A DNA stretch of 64,000 nucleotides from Carposina sasakii (taxonomy: Eukaryota > Arthropoda > Insecta > Lepidoptera > Carposinidae), in contig CP053156.1 in assembly GCA_014607495.2 (NCBI GenBank), forward strand, positions 12,772,001 to 12,836,000. Reading direction: 5' to 3'. The stretch's first letter is position 1. The number at the start of each line of letters is the position of its first letter. The translations under genes were made by a program, and so were the position numbers. The notes beneath the pieces were generated by a model. It was not told where the DNA came from and ran no database searches. It was given only the letters and a program-made list of their open reading frames with translations. Below, piece after piece: positions 19,049 to 36,162 of the stretch.

Positions 19049-19247
19049 AGTAGTAAGTTATTGGGCACACCATCCCAATTTTTGGGTGTGCCCAATAACA
19101 GCAATTAATTTTGATTGACTTACATAGCTCCCTCGTCGAAGCGTGCCACCATTGTATCACATCACCAATGTTTACATTTCTGTAATTTTAAAACAGTAAT
19201 AGTTATTTTATGTTAAAATTCAGAACAGCTATTAAATTACAACATAA
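19049..19247 (+). repeat. Polinton left terminal inverted repeat (199 bp)
   Basis: This matches the reverse complement of 35964-36162 over its full length with a few mismatches. The first 60 bp contain their own inverted repeat, GTTATTGGGCACACC at 19056-19070 and GGTGTGCCCAATAAC at 19084-19098. Identity stops at ACAACATAA. Confidence 0.95.
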
Positions 19248-19329
19248 CATCTATTACGATATCAGCTGTGTAGAAAGAACTAGAAATTTGTATTCCAAAT
19301 TGCTCACGCCTTTCACAGTTAAATAAAAA

Positions 19330-20345
19330 AAGATCTGTGATCAGATTGACTCGAAGACATTTATTTCAACTATCAAAATTTAGATCAGATCGACTCATCA
19401 TTCTACAGAAAAATATAATCTCATCTTTAAATAATAATCTGCGACCAGATAGGCTCGAAGACACCAGAATTTCAAACTTAGATATTCTGATCAGATTGAC
19501 TCGTGTCGTTCCACAGAAAACAAATATATTTTATTATTACCATATTTCTGTGACCAGATAGGATCGAAGACACCAGAATTTCAAACTTAGATATTCTGAT
19601 CAGATTGACTCGTGTCGTTCCACAGAAAACAAATATATTTTTATTATTACCATATTTCTGTGACCAGATAGGATCGAAGACACCAGAATTTCAAACTTAG
19701 ATATTCTGATCAGATTGACTCGTGTCGTTCCACAGAAAACAAATATATTTTTATTATTTTAATGATTACCACATTTCTGCGACCAGATTGGCTCGAAGAC
19801 ACCAGATTACTTGTATCGTTCCACAGAAACCATAAATTATTTTAAAATTTCAATGCTTACTATTTTTCTGCGACCAGATTGGCTCGAAGACACCAGATTG
19901 ACTTGTGTCGTTCCACAAAAACATTAATTATTTTTAAATATAAATTATTACCACATTTCTGCGACCAGATTGGCTCGAAGACATCAGATTACCTCATGTC
20001 GTTCCACAGAAAACATATATATTTTATTATTTTAATGATTACCACATTTCTGCGACCAGATTGGCTCGAAGACACCAGATTACTTGTATCGTTCCACAGA
20101 AAACATAAATTATTTTAAAATTTCAATGCTTACTATATTTCTGCGACCAGATTGGCTCGAAGACACCAGATTGACTTGTGTCGTTCCACAAAAACATTAA
20201 TTTTTTTTAAATATAAATTATTACCACATTTCTGCGACCAGATTGGCTCGAAGACACCAGATTGTCTCGTGTCGTTCCACAGAAAATAACAATTCTGTAA
20301 CGAGATTGGCTCGAAGATATCAGAATTTCAACAATTAAAATTCAT
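19330..20345 (+). repeat. Satellite-like tandem array beside the left TIR
   Basis: About ten to twelve units carry GACCAGATTGGCTCGAAGAC, ACCAGATT and CGTTCCACAGAAA, followed by an AT-rich spacer. Landmark GACCAGAT copies lie near 19443, 19552, 19662, 19781, 19872, 19973, 20054, 20145 and 20236. Spacing varies from 81 to 119 bp, with diverged units at both ends. The GC-richer core is conserved while the spacer length changes. No counterpart is visible near the right TIR. Confidence 0.9.
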
Positions 20346-20896
20346 GTCATTCCACAGAAAACAGAAATTATATTTTAATAATGAAAGAACACCACAATTT
20401 TGAAATTATTAAATTTCTTATCAGGTTAACTTTTATCTTTCTACAAAATATAGGTACCGCATAGTGTTACATTTATAATTGAGTTCTGAACATGCTTTTA
20501 ACATAAAATAACTATTACTTACTGAAAGTAGGGATAAAATTCTGGACAGATTGTCTCAGGTTATTCCACAAATTTACGCATAAACACTAAATCAGTCACG
20601 TACACGAATAAATGTCTTCTAATGCCGTAGGAAGCGGGGTAGGTTTAATTAATAATTCTGTTACACCGTTATTTTTCAGATATGACTTTATGTTCAATCT
20701 TGTGACTTACAACTGTATTTCTAACGCGTATATGTAAAAATATATTTAAAATTATCTACTTACATACATATCATATTATCATATCGTATTAAATGAAGTC
20801 GGTGAAAAAGTCATCCCAACGACTATCCGTATTAGAACCCAGTATTCATACTTAGAAAGTACCTACCATCATCTTTGTATTATCTTCGCAATTCTA

Positions 20897-20946
20897 CAAG
20901 CTGTTTTAGTTTTATCTTCGACTGTACATAAAACTAAAACAGCTTG
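20897..20946. repeat. Perfect 19-bp hairpin in the Polinton left arm
   Basis: CAAGCTGTTTTAGTTTTAT (20897-20915) and its exact inverse (20928-20946) are separated by a 12-base loop. It stands alone in non-coding DNA between the satellite array and the first gene. Confidence 0.8.
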
Positions 20947-21124
20947 CAGAATGTAATATGAAACTCTCGCCTTTGTGAGTTGTTATGACGCGGGCAGGAT
21001 ATTGTGAAATCGTAAAACGATATCTAAGCAAGTAAACTAAATCGTATGGCTTTGCTTGTTGATGGTTACTACTTTATCGTATTATAGTATGAAACAAGAG
21101 CATCATCCTACAAATCTACCTAAG

Positions 21125-21440
21125 ATACATATAATGAAATTGTAACGGATCGATTTATGTACATGGAAAATATATTAAAAACATTATAATGGGTGGTCCT
21201 TATTCACGTAAGAGAACCTAAAACAATGTTTTTCCATTTTGTCTGTATATCTGTATGACCGCATGTCCGTATGTCTTCATATCTGTATGTATGTATGTAT
21301 GTTTGTGCGCGCTAGTCTCTTTCAATGCAGTTTTCAGGAAAATATAGTGACAGGTCCTACACATACCTACACATACAGAAAACGTAATAAAACGAATGAG
21401 CGCACGCGGACAGAGTCACGGGTGTTCACTATAATTATTA
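21125..21440 (+). repeat. Degenerate Helitron-like fragment inside the Polinton
   Basis: ACGGATCGATTTATGTACAT, CAGTTTTCAGGAAAATATAG, TGACAGGTCCTA and GCACGCGGACAGAGTCACGG parallel the element at 14270-14594, but with many changes and no CTAG end. An open frame across it is incidental. Confidence 0.5.
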
Positions 21441-22189
21441 TAAACGCGAAAGTTTGTAAGTATGGATAGATGTTTGTTACTATTTCATATAAAACCTACT
21501 GAATGGATTTTAGTGAATACATAGGTAGATAGGTACATAAAGATCATACCCATTATTCCTAAGGAGGTTGGGCAGAGGTATGCAAATTACACACCCACTT
21601 TTCATCAGTTACCCTATTAATCCCTACGTGGTAAGTGGTGAGCCTACCACCGCTTTTCGAGCACCAATATGACAATCTAGCGACCAGTAACGAATCCAAG
21701 GAAATATTTTCGTGCAAAATAGGTATTATAAGCTATTTAGCGTCAGAGCCTCGTTCGTTAAATAGCAAGTGAGGTTGACTTAGGGTCCCAAAGTATGAGT
21801 CGAAGCCACTTACAACCCTTTTTAATGAAACTTTACATTAATATAGCGTATACATCGGAATAATACATGATGAACTATGAACGCCTGCGCTAAGTTAATA
21901 GCAATTCATCTAACATCCCGATTATTGTTACTTTTTGGCTGGCGCTCTTTCTCATTTAGTTGTTTGTGCACTGTCATTGCATTATCTAAACAATAGTTAT
22001 CCTAAGGATAGCGAGAGTGATAATACATAGTTATGTATACCTTTGTTATCTATTTTTGTTAGTGGTGGCGATGCTATTAGTCTCCTCTGTTATCTAGAGC
22101 TCATAACTTGATAAACATAATGGATATTAAATAAGTATAACATTTTCTTATGGGAGATGATTCTAATGTCGTAAAGATCTATTTATCTT

Positions 22190-22375
22190 TGTGATGATGA
22201 TGATGACTAACCTCGTCTGCTTTGCAAAGGGTAGAATCATTTTGCTATTTAGATATTCAAGTTGTTTGCTCTTTGCATTCGAGACAATTTCACAAAAAGC
22301 ACTCCGGGGGAATTGAACCCATAACCTCCGGGTAGAAAGTTAAACTCTTACTACTAGACCACAGAGGCTGTAAAG
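22190..22375 (-). repeat. tRNA-derived SINE inserted in the Polinton left arm
   Basis: On the minus strand a tRNA-like head (GTGGTCTAGTAGTAAGAG, then GGGTTCAATTCCC) gives A- and B-box-like pol III promoter elements. A tail with GAT repeats follows. It is a parasite of the Polinton rather than a Polinton gene. Confidence 0.6.
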
Positions 22376-22892
22376 TATTGTATAAAATTTAGGTTTCAAA
22401 CCATTTAATTCACTTAGGTTCGATTAATATTTACTTACGGATCTCTAAAACACGTGCGCTCGCGTCAGCAATATTGGTAATGCAAAGGTTTCGATTGATA
22501 TTAAAATGAATTATGATTTGTATTATTTGTAATGACATATGACTTTTTTACCTTAAACACCAATATTACAATAAATTGGAACACTTTTTAAATTTTTCAT
22601 CATTCTTCGGATTAATTTTGAATCCTCGAGTTCACTCGTCGAAAAAGTGGTACATACTTACTTATCTGCTGAGTCTAGCAAGAATCTAAAAATGTACGTA
22701 AGTATTTTTTATTAATTATTATTATTTTATTATTATTTATATATACTTCAACATATAGGTACTAATAATATAACTTATTATGTTTTTATAAGTACTATTT
22801 TTATTCATCTTTTAATTTTCACACAGTTCACTCCCGTTATCGATCGATGTACTTATAGTAACTATCTCCTAACATGTTTTATTGTCTTATAG

Positions 22893-23613
22893 GTCTGACT
22901 CCGAGTGTGAACATGAGGTGGTAGCAGCTGTTCAGCCTAAGAAAAAGACTTCAAGCAAGCGCAAGAATTCAACGGAACCGAGTTCAAGGTAAATAACATT
23001 TTGTTATCTAAACGCGGTGTCGGTTCAATTCTTAAGACAAACCTACTATAGTGATAAATAACTATGTTTATTTCAAAGATATTTTAATTCATCCTTCATA
23101 AGTCACGATAAACCCTTGGGTTCGATTACCCGGTACGGCTATTATAGGGTTTCAAAACACAGATGTCTCTGTTTATTTTTAAGTTATAATGTTTATATTT
23201 GTAACGTACATGTTAGTAAACTTTTCTGTTTTTCTTATAGTAACTCAAAAAAGACGACAGTGCCGTCTAGAGGGAACGAGGACATCTTCGGGTTGGAGGC
23301 GGGGACGTCATTGACGACTACATCCTCGAAGGAGGAGTTGACGTGCTCGATGGTCAGCCGCGTCGCGAACGGGAAGGTGCGACGTACATCGTCGGTCACA
23401 GGAACACATTACGTGGAAATCAAGGTGTACGATACCGCTGATGCAGCCTCCCTTCGTCCGACGGATCGCTGGAAAAAAGCGTTGATCGCGCTGAAGGTGC
23501 AGCTGAACAAAGACTCTCCGCAGTGGCGTAAGCTGCAATCGTTTATGCACGTCACGCACGAACTTTTTAATGAATCGGAGCCCGTTTTTTATAGTTCTAA
23601 AATAAATTCCTAA
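22893..23613 (+). CDS. Polinton-encoded spliced protein of unknown function (5' end unresolved)
   Basis: Two exons are supported. Exon 22893-22988 follows TTATAG and ends before GTAAAT; exon 23241-23613 follows TTCTTATAG and ends at TAA. Phase is kept across the junction. The first exon encodes an acidic start (SDSECEHE) followed by a Lys-rich tract (PKKKTSSKRKN) that could act as a nuclear localisation signal. The second encodes a Ser/Thr-rich linker and a compact C-terminal region (HYVEIKVYDTAD, RPTDRWKKALIALKVQL, HELFNESEPVFY). Exon 23241-23613 is strikingly GC-rich for this AT-rich element. The start codon must lie in an upstream exon that I could not place. I do not recognise the family; being beside the polymerase it may be a replication or regulatory accessory, but that is speculation. 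Confidence 0.6.
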
Positions 23614-23724
23614 TTTTTAAATGATATACTTAGTTTACTTTTTAAAAATATATAGATAACTTTGATAAGATAATATTTGCTTTTTATAAATACTCAACCC
23701 GCACGTTAAATTTAATATTTAAAC

Positions 23725-26700
23725 ATGCCTTTCTGCACTGTATGCAATATAAGTATTGAGCGCAGTCATTGGGTTGGTCATCTACGCAGTACTGAACATA
23801 AAAATCAGAATGTTGTACCATTTTGCGAAGGAGTTGAGATCATAAACTCTGCTTTCCGCAACCGTATATCCACATATAGAATTGCCGCTACAGAGCAGTT
23901 GCAGCAATATTCTCTTACCAATTTTTTTGATAGCATTCATAAAAAAATTAAACATGTAATCGATTTATCTTTAAAAGAACATGTTTGTCTTAAAGTTAAT
24001 TTTGAATTTTTCGCTTTATTCGCATTAGTTAAAAATGATTCAAGTGAGATGAAATCTTTTAATACAAAAAACTTTATTTTGTACCGGAATTACGACTTTG
24101 ATTCAATCATGTATGAGACTAAGAACATTATTTCGAAAAAAATTGAAGAGTTTCAAGACCGTGATAGCGGTTGGACATTACTGAACAATTCTCATCTAGA
24201 AATAAATGTGAACAAGTATCAACCTTTAAGTGGTTCCAAATACATTGTATTACCAGCTCCAATCAAAAACAAAAACGCTTGTGTCAACATTTGCAACAAG
24301 GACGATTACTGTTTTTTGTGGTCGGTTACTGCAGCTCTCTATCCAGCTCAAGCTCACCCTGAGAGAGTTACGTCATATCCTGATTTTAGAGACGTGTTAA
24401 ACGTGCAAAACTTGACATTCCCACTGACTTTCTCAGCCATTGCCCAGTTTGAAGAGAATAATCCTGAAATTTCTATATTTATATACGGTTTAAAAAACAA
24501 TAAGATTGTTATAGGACCTCTGTACAAATCAAAGTATTTAAATAGGAAGGTCATTCATTTGTTGTATTTAGAAAAAGGTGACCTGTCTCATTATTGTTTA
24601 ATAAAAGATTTATCACGACTTGTTAGGAGTCAAATAACAAAACACCATAGCAAACTTTATTTATGTGATACTTGTCTATTATTTTTTAATACGCCTGAAC
24701 AAAAGAGCTCTCACAGTTGTGGAGGTATTGTTACTAGCTTACCACCAAAGGGTTCAGTTATAAAGTTTGAAAATTATATTAAAAAGCAACTTCTACCATT
24801 TGTTATATATGCCGATTTTGAAACAATGCTGGAACGATTCGATTCTTGCGAACCTGACCCAAGTAAAGCAAGCACAGTGCAGAAACAGCGTCATGTGCCC
24901 GTAGCGTTCGCGTACTATCTGGTTTGTGCATTAGATAACAGTCGTAATCATTTCGTCTCCTATCGCGGTCCGGATTGTGTTAAAAAATTTGTAAAATCTA
25001 TTTATGAAGACGCAAAAAGAGTTTATGAGATTTTAAATATTGAGACTCCAATGATATTTACAGATGATGACTTATACGATTTTAAAAATGCTGAAACATG
25101 CCACATTTGTGATCACTTTTTATTAGGTGATAGAGTCCGCGACCATTGCCATGTAACTGGTAAATATCGTGGTGCAGCTCACCAGTACTGTAATCTACAG
25201 TTCAAGCTTCCGAAATATATGGTGGTATTTTTTCATAACTTATCTGGTTATGATAGCCACCTTTTCATAAAAGAGCTGGGAGAAGCTCCTGGTGCAATTA
25301 AAATTATACCGAAAACAAAAGAAAAATATATTGCCATCACTAAATACATTCCGATTTCAAAGAAAAAAACCTTTCAAGTTCGGTTTGTAGATTCTTTTCA
25401 ATTTTTAGGTACAAGTTTAGAGAAACTAGCTAGTACATTGGAAAAGCATCAATTTATTCAATTAAAGTCACACTATCCTAGTGAAAAGCAGCATAGTCTA
25501 CTTATGAGAAAAGGCGTGTACCCATATGACTATATGTCACAATGGGATCGTTACGAAGAAACGTCACTGCCCACAAAGGAACATTTTTACAACTCCTTAT
25601 CTGATGAATTGATTACGGATGAGGATTACATGCACGCTGTATCTGTTTGGTCAGAGTTCAATATTCAAAATATGGGTGCTTATACAGATTTATATCTTAA
25701 AACAGATGTATTGCTGTTAACCGATATTTTTGAAAGTTTTAGACAAACATGCAAACGGTACTATAACCTTGATCCTGCATTTTATTTTACAGCACCGAGT
25801 CTCTCATTTGACGCTATGCTTTTGAAAACTGGTGTTCAGTTGGAATTGATAAGTGATATAGAAATTTATAGAATGATACAAAAAGGTATCAGAGGAGGAG
25901 TTTGTATGTGCGCGAAACGTTACGCTAAAGCCAATAATAAATACTTAGAGAACTATGATTCCTCTAAACCAAGCTCATTTATCGTTTATTTGGATTGTAA
26001 TAATTTATATGGATACAGTATGTGTCAATATTTGCCGCAATCAAATTTCAGATTTTGCAGCCAAAATGAATTAGATTATTTGAAATTGCATATCAATGAT
26101 ATTAGTGACTCAGCAACATTAGGCTATATTCTCGAAGTAGATTTAATTTATCCTGACAGATTACATAGTGATCACAATGATTTACCATTTTGCCCTGAAA
26201 AATTTTCACCTCCTGGAGGTAAAAATAAAAAACTTATTCCAAACTTGTACGATAAATATCATTATGTAATTCATTACGTACATTTAAAAAAATGTTTACA
26301 ACACGGCTTGGTGCTGAGAAAAATACACCGAGCCATCATTTTTAATCAAGGCTGTTTTTTGAAACAATATATCGATCTTAACACCCATTTGCGTCAACAA
26401 GCAAAGTCGACATTTGAGCAAGATTTTTTCAAGTTATTGAACAATAGCATTTTTGGCAAAACATTAGAGGATAATGAAAAACGGGTTGACGTAAAGTTAG
26501 TGAATCAATGGAGTGACATATTTAATAAAACGAAAAAGTTAACTGGTACAGAAAAATGTATATCGAGAGCTAATTTTCACAGTACTGCTGTATTCTCGGA
26601 AAATTTAGTAGCAATACAAATGACCCCCACTCACGTAATCCTTAATAAACCTATACATATTGGGTTTGCTGTTTTAGAATTGTCCAAAAGTCATATGTAC

Positions 26701-27246
26701 GATTTTCACTATTCTATTATGAAGCCATTCTATGCCGATCGTATAGAAATGTGCTATACTGATACTGACAGTTTCGTTTATGATGTTAAGACTAACGACT
26801 TTTACAAAGACCTTAAACAGAATTTTATGCAGTATTTCGACACTAGTAACTATGAATGTAGCAATGGTTATAATCTACCTATTATAAATAAAAAAGTCCC
26901 AGGTTTATTCAAGGATGAAATGGGTGGAAAAATTATTAAAGAGTTTGTTGGACTGCGTTCAAAGCTGTATTGTGTTAAAACGATAAACAAAACTATTAAA
27001 AAAGCTAAAGGTACTAAAAAGTGTGTAATAAAACAATTAAGTATTTCAGACTATAAAAGCGTTTTGCAGGATTGTAATATCATCCGCAAAAAAAATATCC
27101 TGTTTAGATCGATCAAACATGAAATATTCACACAAAGTGTAAATAAAATTGCGCTCTCTAGTAATGATGATAAAAGAGTCATATCCTCAGATAAAATAAC
27201 TACAGTTGCATGGGGAAGTGTAAATATACTTAAATGTAAAATTTGA
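23725..27246 (+). CDS. PolB: Protein-primed family B DNA polymerase (Polinton pPolB), 1173 aa
   Basis: This replicates the element from its termini by protein priming. The uninterrupted 1173-aa ORF starts MPFCTVCNISIERSHWVGHL, a C2H2-type zinc finger. A second Cys/His cluster (CDTCLLFF...HSC) lies near residue 315. Exonuclease motif I, YADFETM, is near 363. A Cys/His cluster (CHICDHFL, RDHCHVTGKYRG) is near 457-475. Exo II, HNLSGYDSH, is near 505, and an Exo III-type YTDLYLKTDVLLL is near 650. Polymerase motif A, YLDCNNLYGYSM, is near 755; motif B, LNNSIFGKT, near 902; motif C, YTDTDS, near 1011. All catalytic aspartates are present. The length fits the Polinton polymerase family. It lies on the opposite strand from most of the other core genes, 111 bp after the preceding small gene. 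Confidence 0.97.
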   Translation: MPFCTVCNISIERSHWVGHLRSTEHKNQNVVPFCEGVEIINSAFRNRISTYRIAATEQLQQYSLTNFFDSIHKKIKHVIDLSLKEHVCLKVNFEFFALFALVKNDSSEMKSFNTKNFILYRNYDFDSIMYETKNIISKKIEEFQDRDSGWTLLNNSHLEINVNKYQPLSGSKYIVLPAPIKNKNACVNICNKDDYCFLWSVTAALYPAQAHPERVTSYPDFRDVLNVQNLTFPLTFSAIAQFEENNPEISIFIYGLKNNKIVIGPLYKSKYLNRKVIHLLYLEKGDLSHYCLIKDLSRLVRSQITKHHSKLYLCDTCLLFFNTPEQKSSHSCGGIVTSLPPKGSVIKFENYIKKQLLPFVIYADFETMLERFDSCEPDPSKASTVQKQRHVPVAFAYYLVCALDNSRNHFVSYRGPDCVKKFVKSIYEDAKRVYEILNIETPMIFTDDDLYDFKNAETCHICDHFLLGDRVRDHCHVTGKYRGAAHQYCNLQFKLPKYMVVFFHNLSGYDSHLFIKELGEAPGAIKIIPKTKEKYIAITKYIPISKKKTFQVRFVDSFQFLGTSLEKLASTLEKHQFIQLKSHYPSEKQHSLLMRKGVYPYDYMSQWDRYEETSLPTKEHFYNSLSDELITDEDYMHAVSVWSEFNIQNMGAYTDLYLKTDVLLLTDIFESFRQTCKRYYNLDPAFYFTAPSLSFDAMLLKTGVQLELISDIEIYRMIQKGIRGGVCMCAKRYAKANNKYLENYDSSKPSSFIVYLDCNNLYGYSMCQYLPQSNFRFCSQNELDYLKLHINDISDSATLGYILEVDLIYPDRLHSDHNDLPFCPEKFSPPGGKNKKLIPNLYDKYHYVIHYVHLKKCLQHGLVLRKIHRAIIFNQGCFLKQYIDLNTHLRQQAKSTFEQDFFKLLNNSIFGKTLEDNEKRVDVKLVNQWSDIFNKTKKLTGTEKCISRANFHSTAVFSENLVAIQMTPTHVILNKPIHIGFAVLELSKSHMYDFHYSIMKPFYADRIEMCYTDTDSFVYDVKTNDFYKDLKQNFMQYFDTSNYECSNGYNLPIINKKVPGLFKDEMGGKIIKEFVGLRSKLYCVKTINKTIKKAKGTKKCVIKQLSISDYKSVLQDCNIIRKKNILFRSIKHEIFTQSVNKIALSSNDDKRVISSDKITTVAWGSVNILKCKI

Positions 27247-27748: not shown

Positions 27749-28203
27749 ATGGTATGTACCTAGTAATTATGTTTTGATTAAAATTAATTTGTGTATAATA
27801 TATTTTAATATTACTCACCTACTTATTTATTATATTTTTGTTTCAGGAAAATCTTAATGGGAATTTAAGTAATACCTTTTACTGGCCTCTTACCCCACCT
27901 ACAAGTCCACAACCCCGCCGCCGACGTTCACCTACACCTCATCCCACGCTGCCGGTATTACGAGCGAAAAGGAATAAGAAGTCGGTTGAGAAAAACATCT
28001 CGTCCTATGTTATTAGCAAGCCGCCGCCGCCGTATTCGGGATTGCGACTCATTAAAGTAGAAGTGTTTGATTTATGTGAAAACAGTGATAGTGCGTCAAT
28101 TAGTGCTCAATACGTGCAATTAGACGCGGTAGATGAAATTATGGATTTAGCAGAAAATTTAGTGAAAAAAATATCTAGAAATATTTTAAACAAACATATT
28201 TGA
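27749..28203 (+). CDS. Small Polinton protein with a PPPPY late-domain motif, spliced
   Basis: The ATG at 27749-27751 is followed at once by the donor GTATGT. An acceptor TTTCAG at 27841-27846 joins it to GAAAATCTTAATGGG, giving a 119-aa protein whose first exon contributes only the Met codon. The N-terminal half is Pro/Arg-rich (PLTPPTSPQPRRRRSPTP) with several SP/TP sites. It is followed by KPPPPYSGLRLIKVEVFDL and an acidic, helical C terminus (DAVDEIMDLAENLVKKI). PPxY motifs recruit WW-domain ubiquitin ligases of the Nedd4 family, which many enveloped viruses and some non-enveloped ones (adenovirus protein VI) use. Here that role is inference. It is GC-rich at its start, like the gene at 22893-23613. 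The family is not recognised. Confidence 0.62.
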
Positions 28204-28370: not shown

Positions 28371-28567
28371 CAAGCAAACATAGAACGTAATTAACGTGCG
28401 ATCGGTGTTAGCGTTTAATTCATACCGTTCATAACGCTAGGTCAGAGTGTTGCGTACTCGCTCTGTTTGATAAGACAGGTATAGCCTGGTTCAGCACAAA
28501 ACAACGCGGCTGGAACGCTTTAACGCGCTAACCTAACGTATGTTAATTACGTCTTATGTTTGCTGAG
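28371..28567. repeat. MITE-like inverted repeat between convergent Polinton genes
   Basis: AGCAAACATAGAACGTAATT at the left pairs with AATTACGTCTTATGTTTGCT at the right, with inverted similarity continuing inward to about 28 bp. It lies where the plus-strand and minus-strand gene blocks converge. It could be a MITE inserted in the element or a native structure. Confidence 0.6.
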
Positions 28568-28625
28568 GGCTTAAATCAAACACATAGGTATAACTCATTT
28601 ATATATTATATGTATTTTTCATTAC

Positions 28626-29120
28626 TTAATCTAATTCAACAACATTTTTATTTTCGATATACCATTTTTTAATACATAGTACATTTTTTAAAGCACAGTG
28701 CTTTGTGTGGAAAATACAATTAAAATTATAATCTTTACAATATTGGTTACATAATTGTAATAAATTACTACACCCCTTTTCTCCAACATCGTGTGGATTA
28801 CAATTTGGTGTCAATTCCGTCAACCACTTCATTTTTTCCCCACCTTTCATTAAAACTGTTTTATGCTGTAAGTATGGTGAGATAATACGTTTAAATTCTC
28901 TATAATCGATGTGTCCCTCACTCCAATAAATGCCACGATTTCTTTCTAACCATTTCACTTGCTTTTTTTCTTGTGCAGATAAGTAGTTAAACGAATATGG
29001 TGGTTTAATTAAAAATGTCTGTGTATAACACTGAGTAGCTATCGCCATCTCTTTGATAATAAATGTATTGCTTAAATCTTTAAATCCTTGGATATCCACT
29101 ATAATTATATCAGGATTCAT
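28626..29120 (-). CDS. Conserved Polinton protein of unknown function, 164 aa
   Basis: The ATG at 29120-29118 overlaps the TGA of the major capsid gene (ATGA). The protein opens with IIIVDIQGFKD and FIIKEMAIA, a strand-Asp-strand-Lys/Glu pattern reminiscent of the first motif of RNase H-fold (DEDD) nucleases. Several Cys and His residues follow (CNPHD, CSNLLQLC, CKDYNFNC, HTKHC). I recall similar small ORFs next to the capsid gene in insect Polintons, but no function is established to my knowledge. A nuclease or metal-binding role is a guess. It is the last gene of the minus-strand block and faces the PPxY gene. Confidence 0.7.
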   Translation of the reverse strand: MNPDIIIVDIQGFKDLSNTFIIKEMAIATQCYTQTFLIKPPYSFNYLSAQEKKQVKWLERNRGIYWSEGHIDYREFKRIISPYLQHKTVLMKGGEKMKWLTELTPNCNPHDVGEKGCSNLLQLCNQYCKDYNFNCIFHTKHCALKNVLCIKKWYIENKNVVELD

Positions 29121-30331
29121 GATATTTTCTTGACTAGACCGCTCAATGGTTTATACTCGACTATACAATCGTTAAGGATAAGACAGTAAGCTGAAGTATT
29201 ATCAGGTAAATCAGTATCACTCTCTATTTCCACTCTTACGTCCACTACAGCTCCCGTCTTCAAGTTATCTACTTGTCTAGAACAGTCGATAACAAACAAT
29301 GGTGCAATATCCTTAAATTGTTTGAGGTTAAGTAAGGGTTCCATGCGACGTCCGAAATAAGACTGTTGAAATTTAACATACTGCTCGTATAATAAACCGA
29401 TATTATCTTTAGAAAAACTTATATTAAGGTTTTCGTATGGAAAATAAGTCGAATTAAGATAAACCTTTACCTCCCGTAAATTACAATGATCAAAACGAGA
29501 CATATCTGCGCTCGCATTATTTTTCCTGTTAGTTTGCAGACCTATTATCACATATCTAGGTTTTTCGATTTGAGTTGAAGTTTTGAGAGACCATGTATGT
29601 TTACTAGTTTTTGGTAATAAAGGATATTCATATAGATCCCAATTTCTGTACACTAATTGTATCGATCTGTCTTTGTCTAAAACTTTTAACAAAGTAAGTT
29701 TTTCTCTATCAGATACTTTTACATGTGGAACACGCCAGATAATTTTGGTGATTTCGATATCGTCTAATACTTCACCTGTGTTCAGTTTCACAGCATTCAA
29801 GTTAGTATTACTTCTCAACAAGATTAATTCATGTTTACAGTTTATTATAACTTTTTGGTAATCTTCAGCGAATCCCAGAATATAAGAGAGTGGTATAGAA
29901 GCAGAAAAATAACCAGAATTTACATTTTTCGTACCATCAATATCCCAGCCCCAAGCTTTAGACATTCTCGACTCGTTTTCATTCATAGAAAGTAATGATT
30001 TCATGGTAGTAGTGATACCTGCATTTTTTATCTTATCAATTTCTATACCATTTAGCTCATATCGAATTTCTTGAAAGAAGTAGAGCAAAGGATTATTTGT
30101 AAAATGAACACTCGAAGCTGCGTCTTTGCTATCTTTTTTGTTTACGATAACTTTACCTTCCAAATATAATGTACTCGCTGATGGTAATATGTATAAATCT
30201 TGTTGATTAATCGGTATGCGAATCTCATCGTTCCTGTTGAAACTAGTTATATATGGTTTGTAAGAATGAAATTCTATGCTGTCCACTGTATTATCATAGG
30301 TCGGAGTTGACAATATGTCTAACATGTTCAT
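29117..30331 (-). CDS. MCP: Polinton major capsid protein (double jelly-roll), 404 aa
   Basis: This is predicted to be the main shell protein of an icosahedral virion. The 404-aa ORF begins MNMLDILSTPTYDNTVDSI. The conserved early stretch NDEIRIPINQQDLYILPSAS is followed by LYLEGKV, which is how I recognise the Polinton capsid family. The rest alternates beta-rich segments (YFFQEIRYELNGIEID, YPLLPKTSKHTWSLKTSTQI, YVIIGLQTNRKN) as expected for two jelly rolls. Established knowledge: Polintons carry double jelly-roll major and single jelly-roll minor capsid genes. The start ATG overlaps the stop of the 47-codon ORF, and its stop overlaps the next start. No break is seen. Confidence 0.9.
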   Translation of the reverse strand: MNMLDILSTPTYDNTVDSIEFHSYKPYITSFNRNDEIRIPINQQDLYILPSASTLYLEGKVIVNKKDSKDAASSVHFTNNPLLYFFQEIRYELNGIEIDKIKNAGITTTMKSLLSMNENESRMSKAWGWDIDGTKNVNSGYFSASIPLSYILGFAEDYQKVIINCKHELILLRSNTNLNAVKLNTGEVLDDIEITKIIWRVPHVKVSDREKLTLLKVLDKDRSIQLVYRNWDLYEYPLLPKTSKHTWSLKTSTQIEKPRYVIIGLQTNRKNNASADMSRFDHCNLREVKVYLNSTYFPYENLNISFSKDNIGLLYEQYVKFQQSYFGRRMEPLLNLKQFKDIAPLFVIDCSRQVDNLKTGAVVDVRVEIESDTDLPDNTSAYCLILNDCIVEYKPLSGLVKKIS

Positions 30332-30471
30332 TTTATCAATCCGATTTGTTTAAGAAAGTTTATATTTTCTTGAGTAAGTTTACTTTTAGGTTTAGATGTT
30401 CCTTTTGAGATAGCTTGATGTGAACTGATCTTTTTACTTTTAGAACTTACATATTTATTATAGACTATCAT
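30328..30471 (-). CDS. 47-aa basic protein between penton and major capsid genes
   Basis: This ORF of 47 codons plus stop starts at the ATG 30471-30469, overlapping the penton TGA, and ends in a TGA at 30330-30328 overlapping the capsid ATG. It encodes a Ser/Lys-rich N-terminal half (YVSSKSKKISSH) and a C terminus LTQENINFLKQIGLIK. I recall short ORFs with an LT-x-EN-x-x-FL ending near the capsid genes of other Polintons. Exact packing between two structural genes with 4-nt overlaps on both sides argues that it is real. It may be a minor virion or DNA-condensing peptide; this is inference. Confidence 0.7.
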   Translation of the reverse strand: MIVYNKYVSSKSKKISSHQAISKGTSKPKSKLTQENINFLKQIGLIK

Positions 30472-31139
30472 TTTTTCTTCAGATGTAAATAAAGTTGTAC
30501 TTCCTCACCTCTTAAATTAACCAAATTATTGTGTATATCCAGCAACCGGATATTAACACTATTAATGTTGTTCTGATTGATTGGAAAATAAATAATATTT
30601 TTTGGAACTTCTACGATTCTATATCCAGGTGGCACGTTTGGAGCGAACTCGTAAATTATATGACTAGGTTCTCCGTTAATGAATGATCCGCTTACTATAT
30701 CACATTCAACCCTCACCACTGTCGTCGATAAAATGTTGACAGGAAGATGTGACACATGTATTATATTGGCTTTGAGAGACTGCTTGTCAAAACCAAGCAA
30801 TGATCCGAGTGAATTATTTTTCTCAAAATTTACATCTTTGGTGCAAAATATAGATGTTTTTAATGTATTATTGTTACAATTTAAATGAAAAGATGCATCT
30901 TTTATATTACTTTTTATGTAATCATTAATATCTTGAAGTTCGTACACTCCTTCTGGTATTTCAATTAATTTATTTTGGTCGTAATGAAATTTATTATTTC
31001 TACTGTCAATATTTGGAATAGAATTAAACGTAGACAAGTACACTAGTGCACATTCATATTCACCATCAAGTTGAAGAGTGGGTGAATAAAACGTGGATAA
31101 GACAGATGAGTTTCCAGTTATGGATAGAGTAAAGGTCAT
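30468..31139 (-). CDS. mCP: Polinton minor capsid (penton-like) protein, 223 aa
   Basis: This is predicted to form the fivefold vertices (single jelly-roll). The 223-aa ORF begins MTFTLSITGNSSVLSTFYSP. The conserved segments YECALVYLSTFNSIPNI and IEIPEGVYELQDINDYIKS are typical of the Polinton penton family. Its ATG lies 34 nt after the protease stop, and a TATATAAG sequence at 31180-31173 overlaps that stop. Its own TGA overlaps the start of the 47-codon ORF. No break is seen. Confidence 0.88.
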   Translation of the reverse strand: MTFTLSITGNSSVLSTFYSPTLQLDGEYECALVYLSTFNSIPNIDSRNNKFHYDQNKLIEIPEGVYELQDINDYIKSNIKDASFHLNCNNNTLKTSIFCTKDVNFEKNNSLGSLLGFDKQSLKANIIHVSHLPVNILSTTVVRVECDIVSGSFINGEPSHIIYEFAPNVPPGYRIVEVPKNIIYFPINQNNINSVNIRLLDIHNNLVNLRGEEVQLYLHLKKK

Positions 31140-31172
31140 TGTGAAAATGATAAATAAAATAACGAAGATTAA

Positions 31173-31180
31173 CTTATATA
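31173..31180 (-). promoter_or_regulatory. Possible TATA element before the penton gene
   Basis: TATATAAG on the minus strand lies 41 nt before the penton ATG. If used, it would give a very short 5' UTR for the penton/47-aa/capsid/164-aa block. It also overlaps the protease stop codon, so it could be coincidence in AT-rich DNA. Confidence 0.35.
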
Positions 31181-31581
31181 GACGTTTGCTGTTTATTCCA
31201 AAATCTTTCTAGAAATTTTATACATAAATGTCCACAGTTAACTTCATTAAAGTTTTGATATCTATTATAATTATATAAAATATTTTTATTCTTGAGATAC
31301 TGAAATAATTCTGACGGTGGTTTCAAATTACCAAAACTGTCAAAATATTCACAATAATTTTTAACTTTGACGTAAGCTACCCAATGAGTATCATTATTAA
31401 CATGATTATCTAAATTGACAATTCCGCATTCAATGCGTTTTACTTTTGTTGGTAACTGATCTTTCATGAACACTCCACGAAAATATGGAATATTTTTTGC
31501 ATATTTCAGAATATCTATATTACTCAAAGCACGCTTGGGTAGCCTACTAATTAGTTTTTTGAACAATTCACAAATAATCCA
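31174..31581 (-). CDS. PRO: Adenain-like maturation cysteine protease, no AUG near its start
   Basis: This is a Ulp1/adenain-type (C5) cysteine protease expected to process virion proteins. The frame is open from 31581 (after TAG at 31584-31582) to TAA at 31176-31174. The catalytic layout is intact: His in DTHWVAYVK, Asp in YFDSFGN, Gln in RYQNFNEV and Cys in NCGHLCIKF. The family-typical start region (SNIDILKYAK, PYFRGVFM) is present. However, the first in-frame AUG is the Met of FMKDQLP, beyond that conserved region. The upstream frame overlaps the end of the PLA2 ORF, where an A-AAA-AAC heptamer (31560-31554) sits just before the PLA2-frame TAA. Translation by -1 frameshifting, by a non-AUG start or through an unseen splice are all possible. 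Confidence 0.85.
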   Translation of the reverse strand, partial: WIICELFKKLISRLPKRALSNIDILKYAKNIPYFRGVFMKDQLPTKVKRIECGIVNLDNHVNNDTHWVAYVKVKNYCEYFDSFGNLKPPSELFQYLKNKNILYNYNRYQNFNEVNCGHLCIKFLERFWNKQQTSI

Positions 31582-32260: not shown

Positions 32261-32299
32261 CGTCTAATAACTAATGTTATAGCATTTAACTATACGCTT

Positions 32300-32307
32300 A
32301 ATATATA
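32300..32307 (-). promoter_or_regulatory. Possible TATA element before the PLA2 gene
   Basis: GTAGGTATATATTA on the minus strand lies about 40 nt before the ATG at 32260. A similar CTAGGTATATATA stands upstream of the 312-aa gene (34703-34696). The shared TAGGTATATAT context suggests a common promoter type; confidence is low in AT-rich DNA. Confidence 0.35.
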
Positions 32308-32316
32308 CCTACTTTA

Positions 32317-33255
32317 TTAATTCACTATAGCATTTTTATCAATCCAGCTATTACTATCATTGTTTAGACCAAGCCACTTCACGAACAATTTATTACCTTT
32401 CTTTTTAATAACTTTCTCTATTAAATAAATATTATAATATTTTGTTTTTTGAAGTTCTTGTTCATAAAAAGTACCTAATATAGGTTGTTTTTGTTGGTCT
32501 TCTATTAAATAAGTTATAGGGCAGGTATTATTAACTTTTTTGATGATAAATATTTCCGTTGACCAGTTTGGTGTGTACCCCTTTTCAAAGCATTTTTTAT
32601 ATTTACTAATACGAACATAATCACCGACATGAAACTTATTTTTGTAATTATTCTTCCTGTTTTTATTTTGTGATTTTAAAATATTTTTCATTACTAATGA
32701 CTTGTTACAATTATCAACATCGGATGGTTTGAAGTTAGTGGTACTATGTTTTGTATTATTATATGTATACATTACATTAGTCAGCAGCTTACCTATCCAT
32801 TTATAACTTCCATTTAGACTAAATTTTTTAAATAAGTTATTTTTTAGTGTTTTAATTAATCGTTCAACTATAGATGCCTTTTTAGTTGAATAAGTTGAAT
32901 AATGTTTAATATTTACAGACAATAACAACCTTCTAAAAACATAATTATAGAACTCTGTTCCCATATCAGTTTGTAGATAATTAGGGTGACGATGATATTT
33001 TTGTAATATGCTTGCGAAGGCATTTGAGATTTCGGTTTTAGTTTTTGATTTTAGTGGTTTTGCCCAAGCAAATTTTGAGAAACAATCTATCACAACTAAA
33101 ATATAATTAAATCCAGAGTTAAACTTTTTTAAATTTTGGAAATCAATCAGATCAGCTTGCCATAAGTCATCAATTCCTTTCAACACAACAGACCTTCGAA
33201 TGAAATTTTTTCGCGCAGCTTTATGGATTTCATTAACAACTTGTTGTTTTATCAT
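32317..33255 (-). CDS. INT: Polinton integrase (DDE, c-integrase) with C-terminal chromodomain, 312 aa
   Basis: This is a retroviral-type integrase that inserts the linear element and makes the 6-bp target duplication. In the rve core the first Asp is in LWQADLIDFQ (near residue 34), the second in LQTDMGTEF (near 95) and the Glu in ASIVERLIKTLK (near 130). The motif FAWAKPLKSKT is typical of the group. The C terminus (YLIEKVIKKKGNKLFVKWLG, then SWIDKNAIV) is a chromodomain. The ATG at 33255 overlaps the TAA of the fibre-like ORF (TAATG). No frameshift or stop is seen. Confidence 0.95.
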   Translation of the reverse strand: MIKQQVVNEIHKAARKNFIRRSVVLKGIDDLWQADLIDFQNLKKFNSGFNYILVVIDCFSKFAWAKPLKSKTKTEISNAFASILQKYHRHPNYLQTDMGTEFYNYVFRRLLLSVNIKHYSTYSTKKASIVERLIKTLKNNLFKKFSLNGSYKWIGKLLTNVMYTYNNTKHSTTNFKPSDVDNCNKSLVMKNILKSQNKNRKNNYKNKFHVGDYVRISKYKKCFEKGYTPNWSTEIFIIKKVNNTCPITYLIEDQQKQPILGTFYEQELQKTKYYNIYLIEKVIKKKGNKLFVKWLGLNNDSNSWIDKNAIVN

Positions 33256-33626
33256 TATGAAGGTCTAACTTGGTCCAAGTTCGCGTTACTGTAAATATTC
33301 TGAATATACTGATCGATAATATGTGGTATAGTTACTTTTAAAGCTTTTATCATTGTTTCAATATTATGTAAAATATTTGTATGTGAATTGTTAAGCAATG
33401 AGTCAACTTCCTCTTTTATGTAAAATTTCGATACAATTTTATCAACATATTCTTTGTTTACAATATCATCTAATTCAGTAGGCATTCTTATACCCCTCAT
33501 TCTCGCTGTTTTTAAATTAAATTCACCATTTTCCAATTTCAGTATATTATTATTATTTTCATTTGAAATCATGTCCATAAACCGCATTCTTTTGTGAACG
33601 TGATGTCCGAATTTATCGATATTCAT
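33255..33626 (-). CDS. Fibre-like Polinton protein, 123 aa
   Basis: The segment FGHHVHKRMRF opens the chain. It is followed by GEFNLKTARMRGIRMPTEL and DIVNKEYVDKIV, a pattern seen near the start of phage and viral tail-fibre or attachment proteins ('...DAVNKxYVD'). The C-terminal half is a likely coiled coil (NNSHTNILHNIETMIKAL). It may be a short trimeric fibre or a virion-assembly factor; the role is inference from pattern. It starts 65 nt downstream of the 312-aa gene, and its stop overlaps the integrase start. Confidence 0.65.
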   Translation of the reverse strand: MNIDKFGHHVHKRMRFMDMISNENNNNILKLENGEFNLKTARMRGIRMPTELDDIVNKEYVDKIVSKFYIKEEVDSLLNNSHTNILHNIETMIKALKVTIPHIIDQYIQNIYSNANLDQVRPS

Positions 33627-33690
33627 GTTGATATCGGATAAGTTGAGAGGTTGAAAGTAAAGTGAGCTAATCTAGGTTTAACATCGACAT

Positions 33691-34629
33691 TTATTGATTG
33701 ATAATACCACCCTCACGTAATTCTTCTACAATAGATATTATTTCGTTATCTAACCCAGTGTTACCAGCATCTTTGGATGCAATCAACAGTTTTAATCTAT
33801 CTACAAGTTCGTTCGGATCATTCCAATACACAAAATCTATATTTTTCTTCCATTGCTTCCTAATAGGTAAACCTTCTCCTTTTCTTTGTGTGATGGTACT
33901 AGGAGACTCTTTACTCATACGGAATAATGGTTTAATAATTTGCAAGTACTTCTGACCCTTATTACTTTTTATAGCCTTTTCAGGATCATAGTCTCGACGA
34001 TGCGCATTAGTATCTATTAACATAGTCTTATATTTTTTAAAATCGTCACTAGTTATAATACTTAGATCAGGGTTTTTTTGGAGCAAAAGTTGTTTCAAGC
34101 CCGGTGTAGTTACATACGTATTTCCTGCTACAGCAATAGTATTATCATTAAGATCGATTGTACTCGAACCAAGCATTAATTTTCCATTTGTAATTCTTAC
34201 TCCAAAAGGTACATTATCTAGTACCTCAGAAGATAAAGACCAAGATGATGTATTTTTTCCAACATAAGAATCCATAGACTTAAAAGATTCGTTTCCGATA
34301 GAAGTGTTATCATCAGTTTCATCATTATTGATTTCCTCTTCCTCGGATGCATAATCGTCAATAGTGATGCTTGGCTTTCTTTTTAATGTTTTATTCATGA
34401 AAGACTTATTACCATCCTTCATTTTTGACGTTATTAGGTGTTCACTTGATTTCTTATTAATTTCTAAGTTTTTGTTGCGGTGAACAATTTCATTGAGAGG
34501 ATCTGTTACAGGTTTAAAGACCGATTCCAATGTTTTGTTACGATCCGTCTCGAGATCACGCATTTTACGAACTTTTCTCTTTACAGCTTCAGCAGCGTTC
34601 ACAACTTTGTGTTTTAATGATTGTTCCAT
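33691..34629 (-). CDS. Conserved Polinton protein of unknown function, 312 aa
   Basis: I take the ATG at 34629 (MEQSLKHKVV) as start, since upstream codons give only a GTG. The N-terminal part is charged and helical (EAVKRKVRKMRDLETDRN), then very acidic (YASEEEEINNDETDD). The C-terminal half has the segments I associate with Polintons: VPFGVRITNGKLMLGSSTI, TYVTTPGLKQLLL, DFVYWNDPNELVDRLKLLIA and NEIISIVEELREGGI. Its role is unknown; an internal virion or DNA-binding function is possible. A TATATATA sequence lies 67 nt upstream (34703-34696). Confidence 0.75.
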   Translation of the reverse strand: MEQSLKHKVVNAAEAVKRKVRKMRDLETDRNKTLESVFKPVTDPLNEIVHRNKNLEINKKSSEHLITSKMKDGNKSFMNKTLKRKPSITIDDYASEEEEINNDETDDNTSIGNESFKSMDSYVGKNTSSWSLSSEVLDNVPFGVRITNGKLMLGSSTIDLNDNTIAVAGNTYVTTPGLKQLLLQKNPDLSIITSDDFKKYKTMLIDTNAHRRDYDPEKAIKSNKGQKYLQIIKPLFRMSKESPSTITQRKGEGLPIRKQWKKNIDFVYWNDPNELVDRLKLLIASKDAGNTGLDNEIISIVEELREGGIINQ

Positions 34630-34726
34630 TTTTAAATTTGTTATACTATCCACTGCGTATTAATCAATAATAATGTGGTAAGAATAAAACATTCGTATAT
34701 ATACCTAGATAGTATTTATGTAACAA

Positions 34727-35413
34727 TCAATCAAAGACTACAAAAGTGTCAAATTTGTTACGATAGCATCCTTTGTTCTTGCTGCAATCTTTGTTGATTA
34801 CTAAGTAATTATATGGTTTCTCCCAAATTCTTGAACACATTTTTCGAAACTCATACCACGTCATATCAGTGTAAGCGTGTTCATCGTAGATATGTTTCAT
34901 ATTGATTTCGTCTTGCTTAAAAATAATTATTAAATTAGCATTATCCCTAATTAGTTGTTTAGGAATTTTACTGTAGGTTTGATTTAAATAGAAGGAATCA
35001 ATATTTTTATGCCTACCCATGGCAAAATAATCTCGGACATTATTTTGATTTTCACAAGCAATATCATCGAATATTATTACAGAATGAGGTTTGGCATCAT
35101 GTGTACTCAATACTTGATCATTTTCAGTAAACTTTAGAAATGAAACATCAGGCACTCTTTTCAAAACTGACTCTAGAAAAATATACTTTGGTTGATAAAG
35201 GGTTTTGGAATAAACGTAAATATTTTTGAAGTTCAGCCCATTTTCATGTAAAATTAAACCAATCATTAAATTAGTCTTCCCACAATTTGAAGGTCCACAA
35301 ATAATACAACGAATTGTATTCGGCAATAGTTTGTTATGACGGTGACTTACATTTTGTGGCTCGATGCAAATATTTTTAACGCATAATGTTTGAGGTTGTT
35401 TTATAAATTTCAT
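34727..35413 (-). CDS. ATP: Polinton packaging ATPase (FtsK/HerA, A32-like), 228 aa
   Basis: This is a predicted genome-packaging motor. I start at the ATG 35413 (MKFIKQPQTLCVKNI); the longer frame upstream begins only with TTG and lacks family similarity. Walker A is CGPSNCGKTNLM, Walker B is SVIIFDDIACENQ, and a downstream FYLNQTYSKIPKQLIRDN matches the sensor region of A32-like ATPases. The length of about 230 aa fits the Polinton family. It is divergent from the small plus-strand gene at 35590, with about 175 bp shared upstream. Confidence 0.93.
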   Translation of the reverse strand: MKFIKQPQTLCVKNICIEPQNVSHRHNKLLPNTIRCIICGPSNCGKTNLMIGLILHENGLNFKNIYVYSKTLYQPKYIFLESVLKRVPDVSFLKFTENDQVLSTHDAKPHSVIIFDDIACENQNNVRDYFAMGRHKNIDSFYLNQTYSKIPKQLIRDNANLIIIFKQDEINMKHIYDEHAYTDMTWYEFRKMCSRIWEKPYNYLVINKDCSKNKGCYRNKFDTFVVFD

Positions 35414-35589
35414 AATAATTTGTCTTCTTACCAGTATGGACGACAATGGAATGATGCTTATTATATTTTTTACATTATTATATACAAGTATATTTAAGTT
35501 TGTAATTTTCGTAAATCTTTTCACTATTGTAATATGAACACAGGCGGTTGGACGCAAAGCAGGAATAAAATATTAACACAAATACAAAC

Positions 35590-35844
35590 ATGACACTATG
35601 TAAAGAAGTTATTCAGTCGTTAGATAAATCGATTATTCTAAACCACTTTACTAATGATATCAGAAAGTGGTACATAAATGGTTTATTACCTCAAAGCTTA
35701 ATCGAAGACAAAGATATTTTCCCATACTTTACGCCTTGTGATGGACATCAAAAGAATCACAAATTAGAAGATTACGATCAACCAGACGGAGTTCTGCCGA
35801 TGATCGCTTTTTGTTTTTTATGTGGCTATAAAACTCAAAAATAG
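35590..35844 (+). CDS. Small Polinton protein with a possible zinc site, 84 aa
   Basis: An ATG ORF next to the right TIR encodes MTLCKEVIQSLDKSIILNHF and ends MIAFCFLCGYKTQK. The pairs CDGH and CFLC could bind zinc. It is divergently arranged with the ATPase and ends 119 bp before the TIR. I do not recognise it; a transcription regulator is a possibility only by analogy with small zinc proteins. Confidence 0.55.
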   Translation: MTLCKEVIQSLDKSIILNHFTNDIRKWYINGLLPQSLIEDKDIFPYFTPCDGHQKNHKLEDYDQPDGVLPMIAFCFLCGYKTQK

Positions 35845-35963
35845 AATCAATCGCGAAACAAATATGATTACTTACACGGGCACGATATGCTTGCTCTGAC
35901 ACGTTTTATGTACAGAAATATATTATCAAAATTAATATTGTTCTCCTTACAATACTCTTAGAC

Positions 35964-36162
35964 TTATGTTGTAATTTAATAGCTGTTCTGAATTTTAACA
36001 TAAAATAACTATTACTGTTTTAAGATTATAGAAATGTAAACATGAGTGATGTGATACAATGGTGGCACGCTTCGACGAGGGAGCTATGTAAGTCAATCAA
36101 AATTAATTGCTGTTATTGGGCACACCCAAAAATTGGGATGGTGTGCCCAATAACTTACTACT
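35964..36162 (-). repeat. Polinton right terminal inverted repeat (199 bp)
   Basis: This is the inverse of 19049-19247 with a few mismatches, for example around 36035-36055. It contains the same subterminal hairpin (GTTATTGGGCACACC and its inverse) and ends ...TAACTTACTACT before AACAAA. Confidence 0.95.

What the first reader, a model, noticed from the sequence alone, without database searches (positions are those of the whole stretch)
19049..36162. A structurally complete, apparently young Polinton/Maverick with a full virion gene set
The 17.1-kb element has exact AG...CT ends, 199-bp TIRs, a 6-bp AACAAA duplication and uninterrupted polymerase, integrase, ATPase, major capsid and penton genes, with all expected catalytic residues visible. 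The paralogous unit 2 preserves the pre-insertion site with a single AACAAA. The insertion therefore postdates a very recent segmental duplication. Few Polintons offer such a clean empty-site control, and this one may still be capable of making particles.
Basis: partly seen in the sequence, partly recalled or inferred. Interest (0 to 1): 0.9.

Follow-up and report, generated by a model that had tools for sequence, protein, structure and literature searches.

The report
Moth Polinton with frameshifted protease gene
This is a recently inserted copy of a lately active virus-like jumping element in what looks like a moth genome; this copy has one broken virion gene, and its family appears to make its virion protease by a programmed slip of the ribosome, as retroviruses do.

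Summary
The anatomy is confirmed: 17,114 bp, 199-bp TIRs, 6-bp AACAAA duplication, clean empty site in tandem unit 2. The element belongs to Eupolintoviridae (adintovirus/Maverick; best named MCP relative Spodoptera moth adintovirus 1, 80%). Six near-identical siblings sit on five other contigs; all seven copies have different 6-bp TSDs, and two siblings differ by 2 of 11,488 compared bases.

TIR differences do not date this insertion: three of four recur in siblings. The virion gene set is not intact: the minor capsid gene (PLA2/pX-like CAP) carries a one-base frameshift absent from 6 of 6 siblings (assembly error possible).

New: the adenain-like protease has no usable ATG in any of six families. 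CAP ends exactly on A AAA AAC TA(A/G), the protease lies in the -1 frame, and 6-10 nt downstream an 8-13-bp long-range stem is predicted in 6 of 6 families. Synonymous-codon shuffles do not reproduce it (0 of 400; 0 of 5,000 without F2). Covariation is not significant, and no RNA or protein was seen. The simplest reading is a gag-pro-like -1 ribosomal frameshift. My searches found no published CAP-protease case; a preprint suggests frameshifts for other adintovirus genes.

The parts
19049..19247 (+). left terminal inverted repeat (199 bp)
35964..36162 (-). right terminal inverted repeat (199 bp)
19043..19048 (.). target site duplication AACAAA, left copy
36163..36168 (.). target site duplication AACAAA, right copy
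56913..56918 (.). single AACAAA of the empty site in tandem unit 2
23725..27246 (+). POLB, 1173 aa, with endonuclease-VII-like segment (below Pfam cut-off); family-B polymerase motifs seen by eye (motif names recalled)
28626..29120 (-). ORF8, 164 aa, start overlaps MCP stop as ATGA
29117..30331 (-). major capsid protein, double jelly roll, 404 aa
   Evidence: PF21738, 1e-110
30468..31139 (-). penton (minor capsid), 223 aa
31174..31560 (-). PRO, adenain-like cysteine protease, read in the -1 frame from the slippery site; no upstream ATG
31554..31560 (-). slippery heptamer A AAA AAC, followed by the CAP stop TAA (31551-31553)
31535..31547 (-). 5' arm of the predicted frameshift-stimulating stem (13 bp here)
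31372..31384 (-). 3' arm of the same stem, over the HWVAY catalytic-motif codons
31551..32260 (-). CAP: PLA2 domain plus pX/pVI-like hydrophobic tail; frameshifted in this copy by one base
32317..33255 (-). INT, rve integrase with chromodomain, 312 aa
33255..33626 (-). 123-aa fibre-like ORF: conserved N-terminal peptide plus possible coiled coil (role guessed)
33691..34629 (-). ORF2, 312 aa, unknown
34727..35413 (-). packaging ATPase, 228 aa (Walker A seen by eye)

Best explanation
The element is a recently integrated copy of a lately active Eupolintoviridae (adintovirus/Maverick) family. Shown: TIRs, different 6-bp TSDs in 7 of 7 copies, near-identity between chromosomes, an empty site. Inferred: a linear protein-primed genome was replicated by POLB and joined to unit 1 by the rve integrase after the tandem duplication. 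In these families the protease seems not to be translated from its own start. Ribosomes reading CAP reach A AAA AAC directly before the CAP stop, pause at a long-range stem 6-10 nt downstream, and some slip by -1 into PRO. This would make a minority CAP-PRO fusion that carries the protease into the particle on the pX/PLA2 protein. The signal and its conservation are shown; slippage, ratio and packaging are inferred. This copy's own CAP frame is shifted upstream of the slip site, so on this model it makes neither full CAP nor protease and would need help from siblings, unless the indel is an assembly error.
For: Copies and TSDs. Empty site. Heptamer at the CAP/PRO junction in 45 of 45 fetched pieces that hold the PRO N-terminal motif (36 distinct places by my count, six families, mostly F1 and F2). 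PRO has no ATG before its conserved start in six families; in F6 the PRO frame is closed by a stop immediately 5' of the heptamer. PRO-frame identity is 0.26 in the 12 codons before the slip and 0.67 in the 12 after. Stem in 6 of 6 families; real score 149 against shuffle mean 72.8 (sd 9.6), 0 of 400 in this or any other register tried; without F2, 0 of 5,000 in this register. MFE z under synonymous shuffles -5.4, -2.6, -0.7, -2.0, -3.8, -2.7, against -1.3 to +0.9 for the rest of PRO. Stem core pairing probability 0.83-1.00. A distant protease family without the heptamer (3 of 3 loci read) has its own Met, 11 codons after the slip column. The helix and strand ahead of the first Met are part of the adenain-like model.
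Against: No RNA, ribosome or protein data. The covariation control is not significant: 277 of 500 shuffles reach the observed percentage paired and 124 of 500 the covariation score, because both arms are coding and vary little. F3 structure z is only -0.7. Windows of 50-70 nt just downstream show nothing (z -1.4 to +1.6). The 10-mer AAAAAACTAR is commoner than chance in this window (9 against 2.0 expected), so only its position counts. Part of the complementarity is forced by the conserved amino acids (shuffle mean is already 72.8). An aligned Ile codon (ATT or ATA, weak near-cognate starts) stands at codon 17 from the slip in all six families. All six families come from one genome. The window indel lies in a homopolymer run, a usual place for read error.
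Confidence: 0.78

Rival explanations
1. PRO is made another way: splicing from an upstream exon, non-AUG initiation, reinitiation after CAP, or transcriptional slippage on the A run.
For: No transcripts were available; eukaryotic DNA viruses often splice (recalled); a reinitiation-like ATGA overlap exists at MCP/ORF8 in 5 of 5 families tested; F4 and F6 have 8 A in a row; an Ile codon ATT/ATA is aligned in all six families at codon 17 from the slip. On re-checking, that Ile codon made me raise this rival from 0.17 to 0.19.
Against: In F6 the PRO frame opens exactly at the heptamer and has no AG acceptor before the conserved RLP. Starting at the Ile codon would drop the conserved LP.R.L.N.D stretch. 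F1, F2, F3 and F5 have only six A. The synonymous-tuned stem at frameshift spacing is unexplained by this rival.
Confidence: 0.19
2. The one-base change in CAP is an assembly or sequencing error and the window copy is intact.
For: It is the only indel against five clean siblings in about 11.5 kb and lies in a homopolymer run; the C30 sibling shows error-like indels in all four blocks.
Against: The rest of the window copy shows no other indel that all five clean siblings lack; elements accumulate such changes.
Confidence: 0.4
3. The empty site reflects the other haplotype wrongly placed in tandem, or gene conversion or loss in unit 2, rather than a duplication older than the insertion.
For: Head-to-tail units at 1.4-1.7% divergence are within moth heterozygosity (recalled); unit 2 ends about 1.25 kb past the window and no third unit follows in the next 2.1 kb read.
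Against: Units carry different mobile insertions, one segment differs by 5.2%, and aminopeptidase genes are often tandem in moths (recalled).
Confidence: 0.2
4. The family spreads only as a transposon and makes no particles.
For: No particle evidence was available; copies are many in one genome.
Against: Of seven genes tested, F1 against F2 dN/dS is lowest for MCP 0.048, penton 0.058 and ATPase 0.067, against integrase 0.185, the opposite of decay of capsid genes.
Confidence: 0.15

Closest known systems
Sf Maverick 2 of Spodoptera frugiperda cells (PMC5803895, passages read; its figures are not held)
   Same: As described in the passages: eight small tandem ORFs listed as ATP, ORF2, INT, CAP(PLA2), PRO, ORF6, ORF7, ORF8, with POLB (endonuclease VII segment) on the opposite strand; PRO listed as 133 aa; transcribed in Sf cells
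   Different: Our element has an extra 123-aa ORF between ORF2 and INT. The passages call the PLA2 protein the capsid and report no PY-type capsid protein, while ORF7 (P0005) is the DJR MCP; the passages seen say nothing on how PRO is started
Spodoptera moth adintovirus 1 (Eupolintoviridae)
   Same: Hexon/MCP 80% identical over 99%; taxonomy
   Different: Only its hexon was compared
Adintovirus frameshift suggestions in PMC11071296 (passages read)
   Same: Suggests by KnotInFrame that penton, and Hexon-Adenain, could use -1 slippery sites
   Different: Here the partner of the protease is the PLA2/pX (minor capsid) protein, not hexon or penton, and the signal is supported by six families and shuffles
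Retroviral gag-pro -1 frameshift, e.g. MMTV and HTLV with A AAA AAC (recalled)
   Same: Same heptamer, protease downstream in -1 frame, capsid-type protein upstream
   Different: dsDNA element; adenain-type cysteine protease; long-range stem with arms about 150 nt apart instead of a compact pseudoknot

Membership tests
Eupolintoviridae / Polinton-Maverick | TIRs and 6-bp TSD | tested here: met
   7 of 7 window-family copies; ends begin AGTAGT, the motif reported as commonest in vertebrate Mavericks (passage). The one F2 copy tried gave no end with the F1 string
Eupolintoviridae / Polinton-Maverick | rve integrase with C-terminal chromodomain | tested here: met
   PF00665 5.5e-10 (above cut-off), PF00385 1.8e-4 (below its cut-off)
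Eupolintoviridae / Polinton-Maverick | protein-primed family B DNA polymerase | tested here: inconclusive
   1173-aa ORF with family B motifs by eye; no PolB family hit in Pfam at 0.01, no PDB hit at 0.1
Eupolintoviridae / Polinton-Maverick | double jelly-roll MCP | tested here: met
   PF21738 1e-110; 80% to adintovirus hexon
Eupolintoviridae / Polinton-Maverick | single jelly-roll penton | tested here: met
   Foldseek mavirus penton E 5.8e-8, TM 0.44
Eupolintoviridae / Polinton-Maverick | adenain-like protease | tested here: met
   Foldseek adenovirus proteinase E 2.3e-6; phmmer 1avp 0.0047; Pfam matches below cut-off
Eupolintoviridae / Polinton-Maverick | FtsK/HerA-type packaging ATPase | tested here: inconclusive
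   Walker A by eye; weak PF01637 only, below cut-off
Adintovirus as defined in PMC11071296 | OTU-like domain at PolB N-terminus | not tested
   no fold run on POLB
-1 programmed ribosomal frameshift | X XXY YYZ heptamer in the upstream frame | tested here: met
   A AAA AAC in six of six families; in the window copy itself the upstream frame is lost by the CAP indel
-1 programmed ribosomal frameshift | stimulatory RNA structure about 5-9 nt downstream | tested here: met
   predicted stem in 6 of 6, spacers 6, 8, 10, 9, 8, 9 nt for F1-F6; F3 spacer slightly long and its z weak; covariation itself not significant
-1 programmed ribosomal frameshift | fusion product made | not testable with these tools
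   needs reporter, profiling or peptides

The most novel reading that the evidence does not exclude
A whole clade of moth Polintons makes its virion protease only as a -1 frameshift fusion to the PLA2/pX minor capsid protein. That would be a gag-pro-like switch, evolved independently in eukaryotic dsDNA elements, which fixes the protease dose and packages it on a membrane-active core protein.
Probability: 0.75. Interest if true: 0.75.

Novelty: new variant of a known kind. Interest (0 to 1): 0.62.

Why it matters
Maverick particles had not been observed as of 2021 (abstract of PMC8097293 in the listing). A frameshift that ties protease dose to a minor capsid protein makes most sense if particles are assembled and matured, so it would be a testable, sequence-level sign of virion production. 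It would add a gag-pro-like control to eukaryotic dsDNA elements and explain a protease without a start codon. For reading young Polintons it warns that TIR-TIR differences can be inherited and need not date an insertion.

Tried and rejected
TIR divergence as a clock: rejected, since differences 118/134/139 are shared with the siblings. Relatives in viral contigs: MCP alone no match; MCP alignment gave 248 pattern matches, none confirmed. Compact downstream hairpin for the frameshift: not supported. Rarity of the 10-mer as evidence: rejected. Base-pair covariation as evidence: not significant. PDB search with POLB found nothing; PDB search with the MCP profile gave one hit at E 0.51, taken as chance. 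TIR search on the F2 copy C21 found no end with the F1 core string, so its TSD was not determined. Of 30 MCP loci fetched, two (L041, L044) do not hold the PRO motif and are not in the 45.
Full report
Observation. The window is C9:12772001-12836000 of a 399-Mb genome in 31 contigs, a moth by inference: the best named MCP relatives are Spodoptera, Helicoverpa and Chrysodeixis, and flanking frames match the ERAP1_C domain of aminopeptidases. Element 19049-36162 has 199-bp TIRs with 4 mismatches, AACAAA on both sides, and a paralogous empty site with one AACAAA at 56913-56918. Eight aligned pieces of the two units differ by 285 of 17,184 bases, 1.66%; pieces range from 0.56 to 5.22%. Unit 2 ends about 1.25 kb beyond the window and no third unit follows in the next 2.1 kb.

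Family and age. The ATPase query gave 113 matched stretches in the genome and the MCP query 104; rows are stretches, some are fragments, and the tool calls such counts lower bounds. Seven copies form one family (F1): window, C13, C30, C10 twice, C11, C27. All seven have intact ends and different 6-bp duplications. Over four blocks (about 11.5 of 17.1 kb; two blocks overlap by 71 bases) the window differs from C13 by 10 of 11,487, from C10a by 41, C11 by 44, C27 by 41 and C10b by 39; C30 differs by 48 but with about 60 indel runs and looks error-ridden. C10a and C27, on different contigs, differ by 2 of 11,488 (sums over the blocks). The window has 7 private substitutions and one private indel against the five clean siblings (C30 left out). 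At a recalled moth rate of 2.9e-9 per site per generation, window-C13 is about 150,000 generations, C10a-C27 about 30,000, and the tandem duplication about 2.5 million. If the window copy was a donor for C13 it could be older than their split; the empty site bounds it by the duplication, barring gene conversion.

TIRs. Left-right differences 118, 134 and 139 recur in five siblings in register, and in C10b shifted by one base (my reading of its positions 117, 133, 138); only 119 in the left TIR is private to the window. So TIR divergence is inherited here. Positions 29 and 31 differ between subgroups but agree at both ends in five copies (window, C13, C10a, C11, C27); C30 disagrees at 29 and C10b could not be scored. 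The outer part may be homogenised and the inner part not (inference).

Genes. MCP: PF21738 1e-110. Penton: AlphaFold model pLDDT 83.9, best fold matches mavirus penton and adenovirus penton base. Integrase with chromodomain and CAP with a parvovirus-type PLA2 domain. POLB carries an endonuclease-VII-like segment (below cut-off), as reported for Sf Maverick POLB (passages). The order matches Sf Maverick 2 as described in passages of PMC5803895, plus an extra 123-aa ORF. That ORF had only 2 relatives at E 0.001 in the protein search, which needs shared words, besides F2 and F3 copies in this genome. The three aligned proteins share an N-terminal IDKFGHHVHKR peptide and a P...DD.VNK.YVD motif; a fibre-like role is a guess. 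F1 against F2 dN/dS in the seven genes tested: MCP 0.048, penton 0.058, ATPase 0.067, integrase 0.185, ORF8 0.225, ORF2 0.233, fibre-like 0.284; POLB, CAP and PRO were not tested. Capsid and packaging genes are the most constrained of the seven.

The broken gene. CAP is 236 aa in 6 of 6 siblings and in the two F2 copies checked, but 169 aa in the window, because of a one-base indel in a homopolymer run. Intact copies exist; an assembly error cannot be excluded. POLB of the window has lost its family stop and is 2 aa longer than in five clean siblings. C10b has a stop in PRO.

The protease. The PRO frame has no ATG before its conserved part: the first Met is 39-50 codons into the open frame in F1-F5 copies (the disrupted C30 frame aside) and at codon 32 from the slip in F6. 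CAP ends on A AAA AAC TA(A/G) and PRO continues in the -1 frame in F1-F5 and F6. F1 against F3 (six of seven genes gave a value) and F1 against F5 (four of seven) have synonymous divergence of 1.6 or more, or saturated, so this is not recent descent; F4 and F6 were not tested that way. In F6 the PRO frame is closed by a stop directly before the heptamer. PRO-frame identity between families is 0.26 before and 0.67 after the slip (F1-F2 pair left out). Given Lys-Asn, the chance of the exact heptamer from codon use is 0.085-0.10 per family in the five loci counted. All 45 fetched pieces that hold the PRO N-terminal motif have the heptamer there; several pieces overlap, leaving 36 places by my count. 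A distant protease family (33% identical in alignment A5) has no such heptamer in 3 of 3 loci and starts with its own Met, 11 codons after the slip column. The AlphaFold model of PRO (pLDDT 84.6, seven sequences) places a helix at 14-20 and a strand at 27-32, ahead of or at the first Met, residue 32, and matches adenovirus proteinase; phmmer to 1avp aligns from residue 24. One weak alternative start remains: an Ile codon, ATT or ATA, at codon 17 from the slip in all six families; using it would drop the conserved stretch before it.

The stem. The longest helix between the region just after the slip and the rest of PRO lies in the same register in 6 of 6 families: 13, 11, 9, 10, 8 and 11 bp, with spacers of 6, 8, 10, 9, 8 and 9 nt after the heptamer and arms about 150 nt apart. 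F1 is the C13 copy; the window copy, used in A4, has the same 13-bp arms. Codon shuffles that keep each protein and codon use give 72.8 +- 9.6 against 149 observed, 0 of 400 in this or any register tried (5' arm within 8-40 nt); without F2, real 123, largest shuffle 109, 0 of 5,000 in this register. The helix is in the minimum-energy fold of all six. Energy z under the same shuffles is -5.4 to -0.7, F3 being weak; the remainder of PRO gives -1.3 to +0.9. Against: pair covariation does not beat its shuffle control, though sliding the helix lowers paired cells from 85.9% to 23-53%; windows of 50-70 nt show nothing; all families come from one genome; no RNA or protein data.

Literature. Searches turned up no report of a CAP/minor-capsid-protease frameshift in Polintons. 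Of 17 papers I saw frameshift passages in seven (PMC5803895, PMC8097293, PMC10120064, PMC12721341, PMC6905037, PMC11071296, PMC12567637); the other ten, and all further papers (15 of 26 listed), I saw only as listings. PMC11071296 (passages) suggests slippery sites for adintovirus penton and Hexon-Adenain. Starrett 2021 is not held and was not read. The library lacks most subscription papers.

Verdict. The element is an ordinary member of a known group by anatomy, in a genome where the group has lately been active; this copy is probably not self-sufficient. The frameshift-fused protease is the part worth following.

Noticed in passing
57100-59145: Unit 2 has its own insertion absent from unit 1: 111-bp direct terminal repeats around a 595-aa ORF with Copia-type reverse transcriptase (PF07727).
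   Followed up: partly
L072 (C14:1093300-1100600): Compact integrase/ATPase element with about 1-kb TIRs (97%) that themselves carry the adenain-like protease gene, so it occurs twice in inverted pairs about 6.3 kb apart; 46 protease matches at 35-39% identity in the genome, several in such pairs; no long PolB ORF in the piece.
   Followed up: partly
33255-33626: Fibre-like 123-aa ORF with only two relatives at E 0.001 in the protein search.
   Followed up: partly
29117-29120 and 33253-33257: MCP stop and ORF8 start overlap as ATGA in F1-F5 (5 of 5); fibre-like stop and INT start overlap as TAATG in F1 and F2, not found in F3-F5.
   Followed up: partly
19438-20286: Tandem array (91-273-bp units) inside the element near the left TIR; function unknown.
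   Followed up: no
23062-23610 and 27799-28200: Open frames of 183 and 134 aa inside the element without any Pfam match.
   Followed up: no
L003, L018, L019 (C30 copy): Sibling with many single-base indels, looks like an error-rich assembly stretch.
   Followed up: no
19049-19247 and 35964-36162: Outer part of the TIRs agrees at both ends within most copies while inner differences persist, suggesting partial homogenisation.
   Followed up: no
14873-15976: Frames of an aminopeptidase-like gene (ERAP1_C) in the duplicated unit.
   Followed up: no
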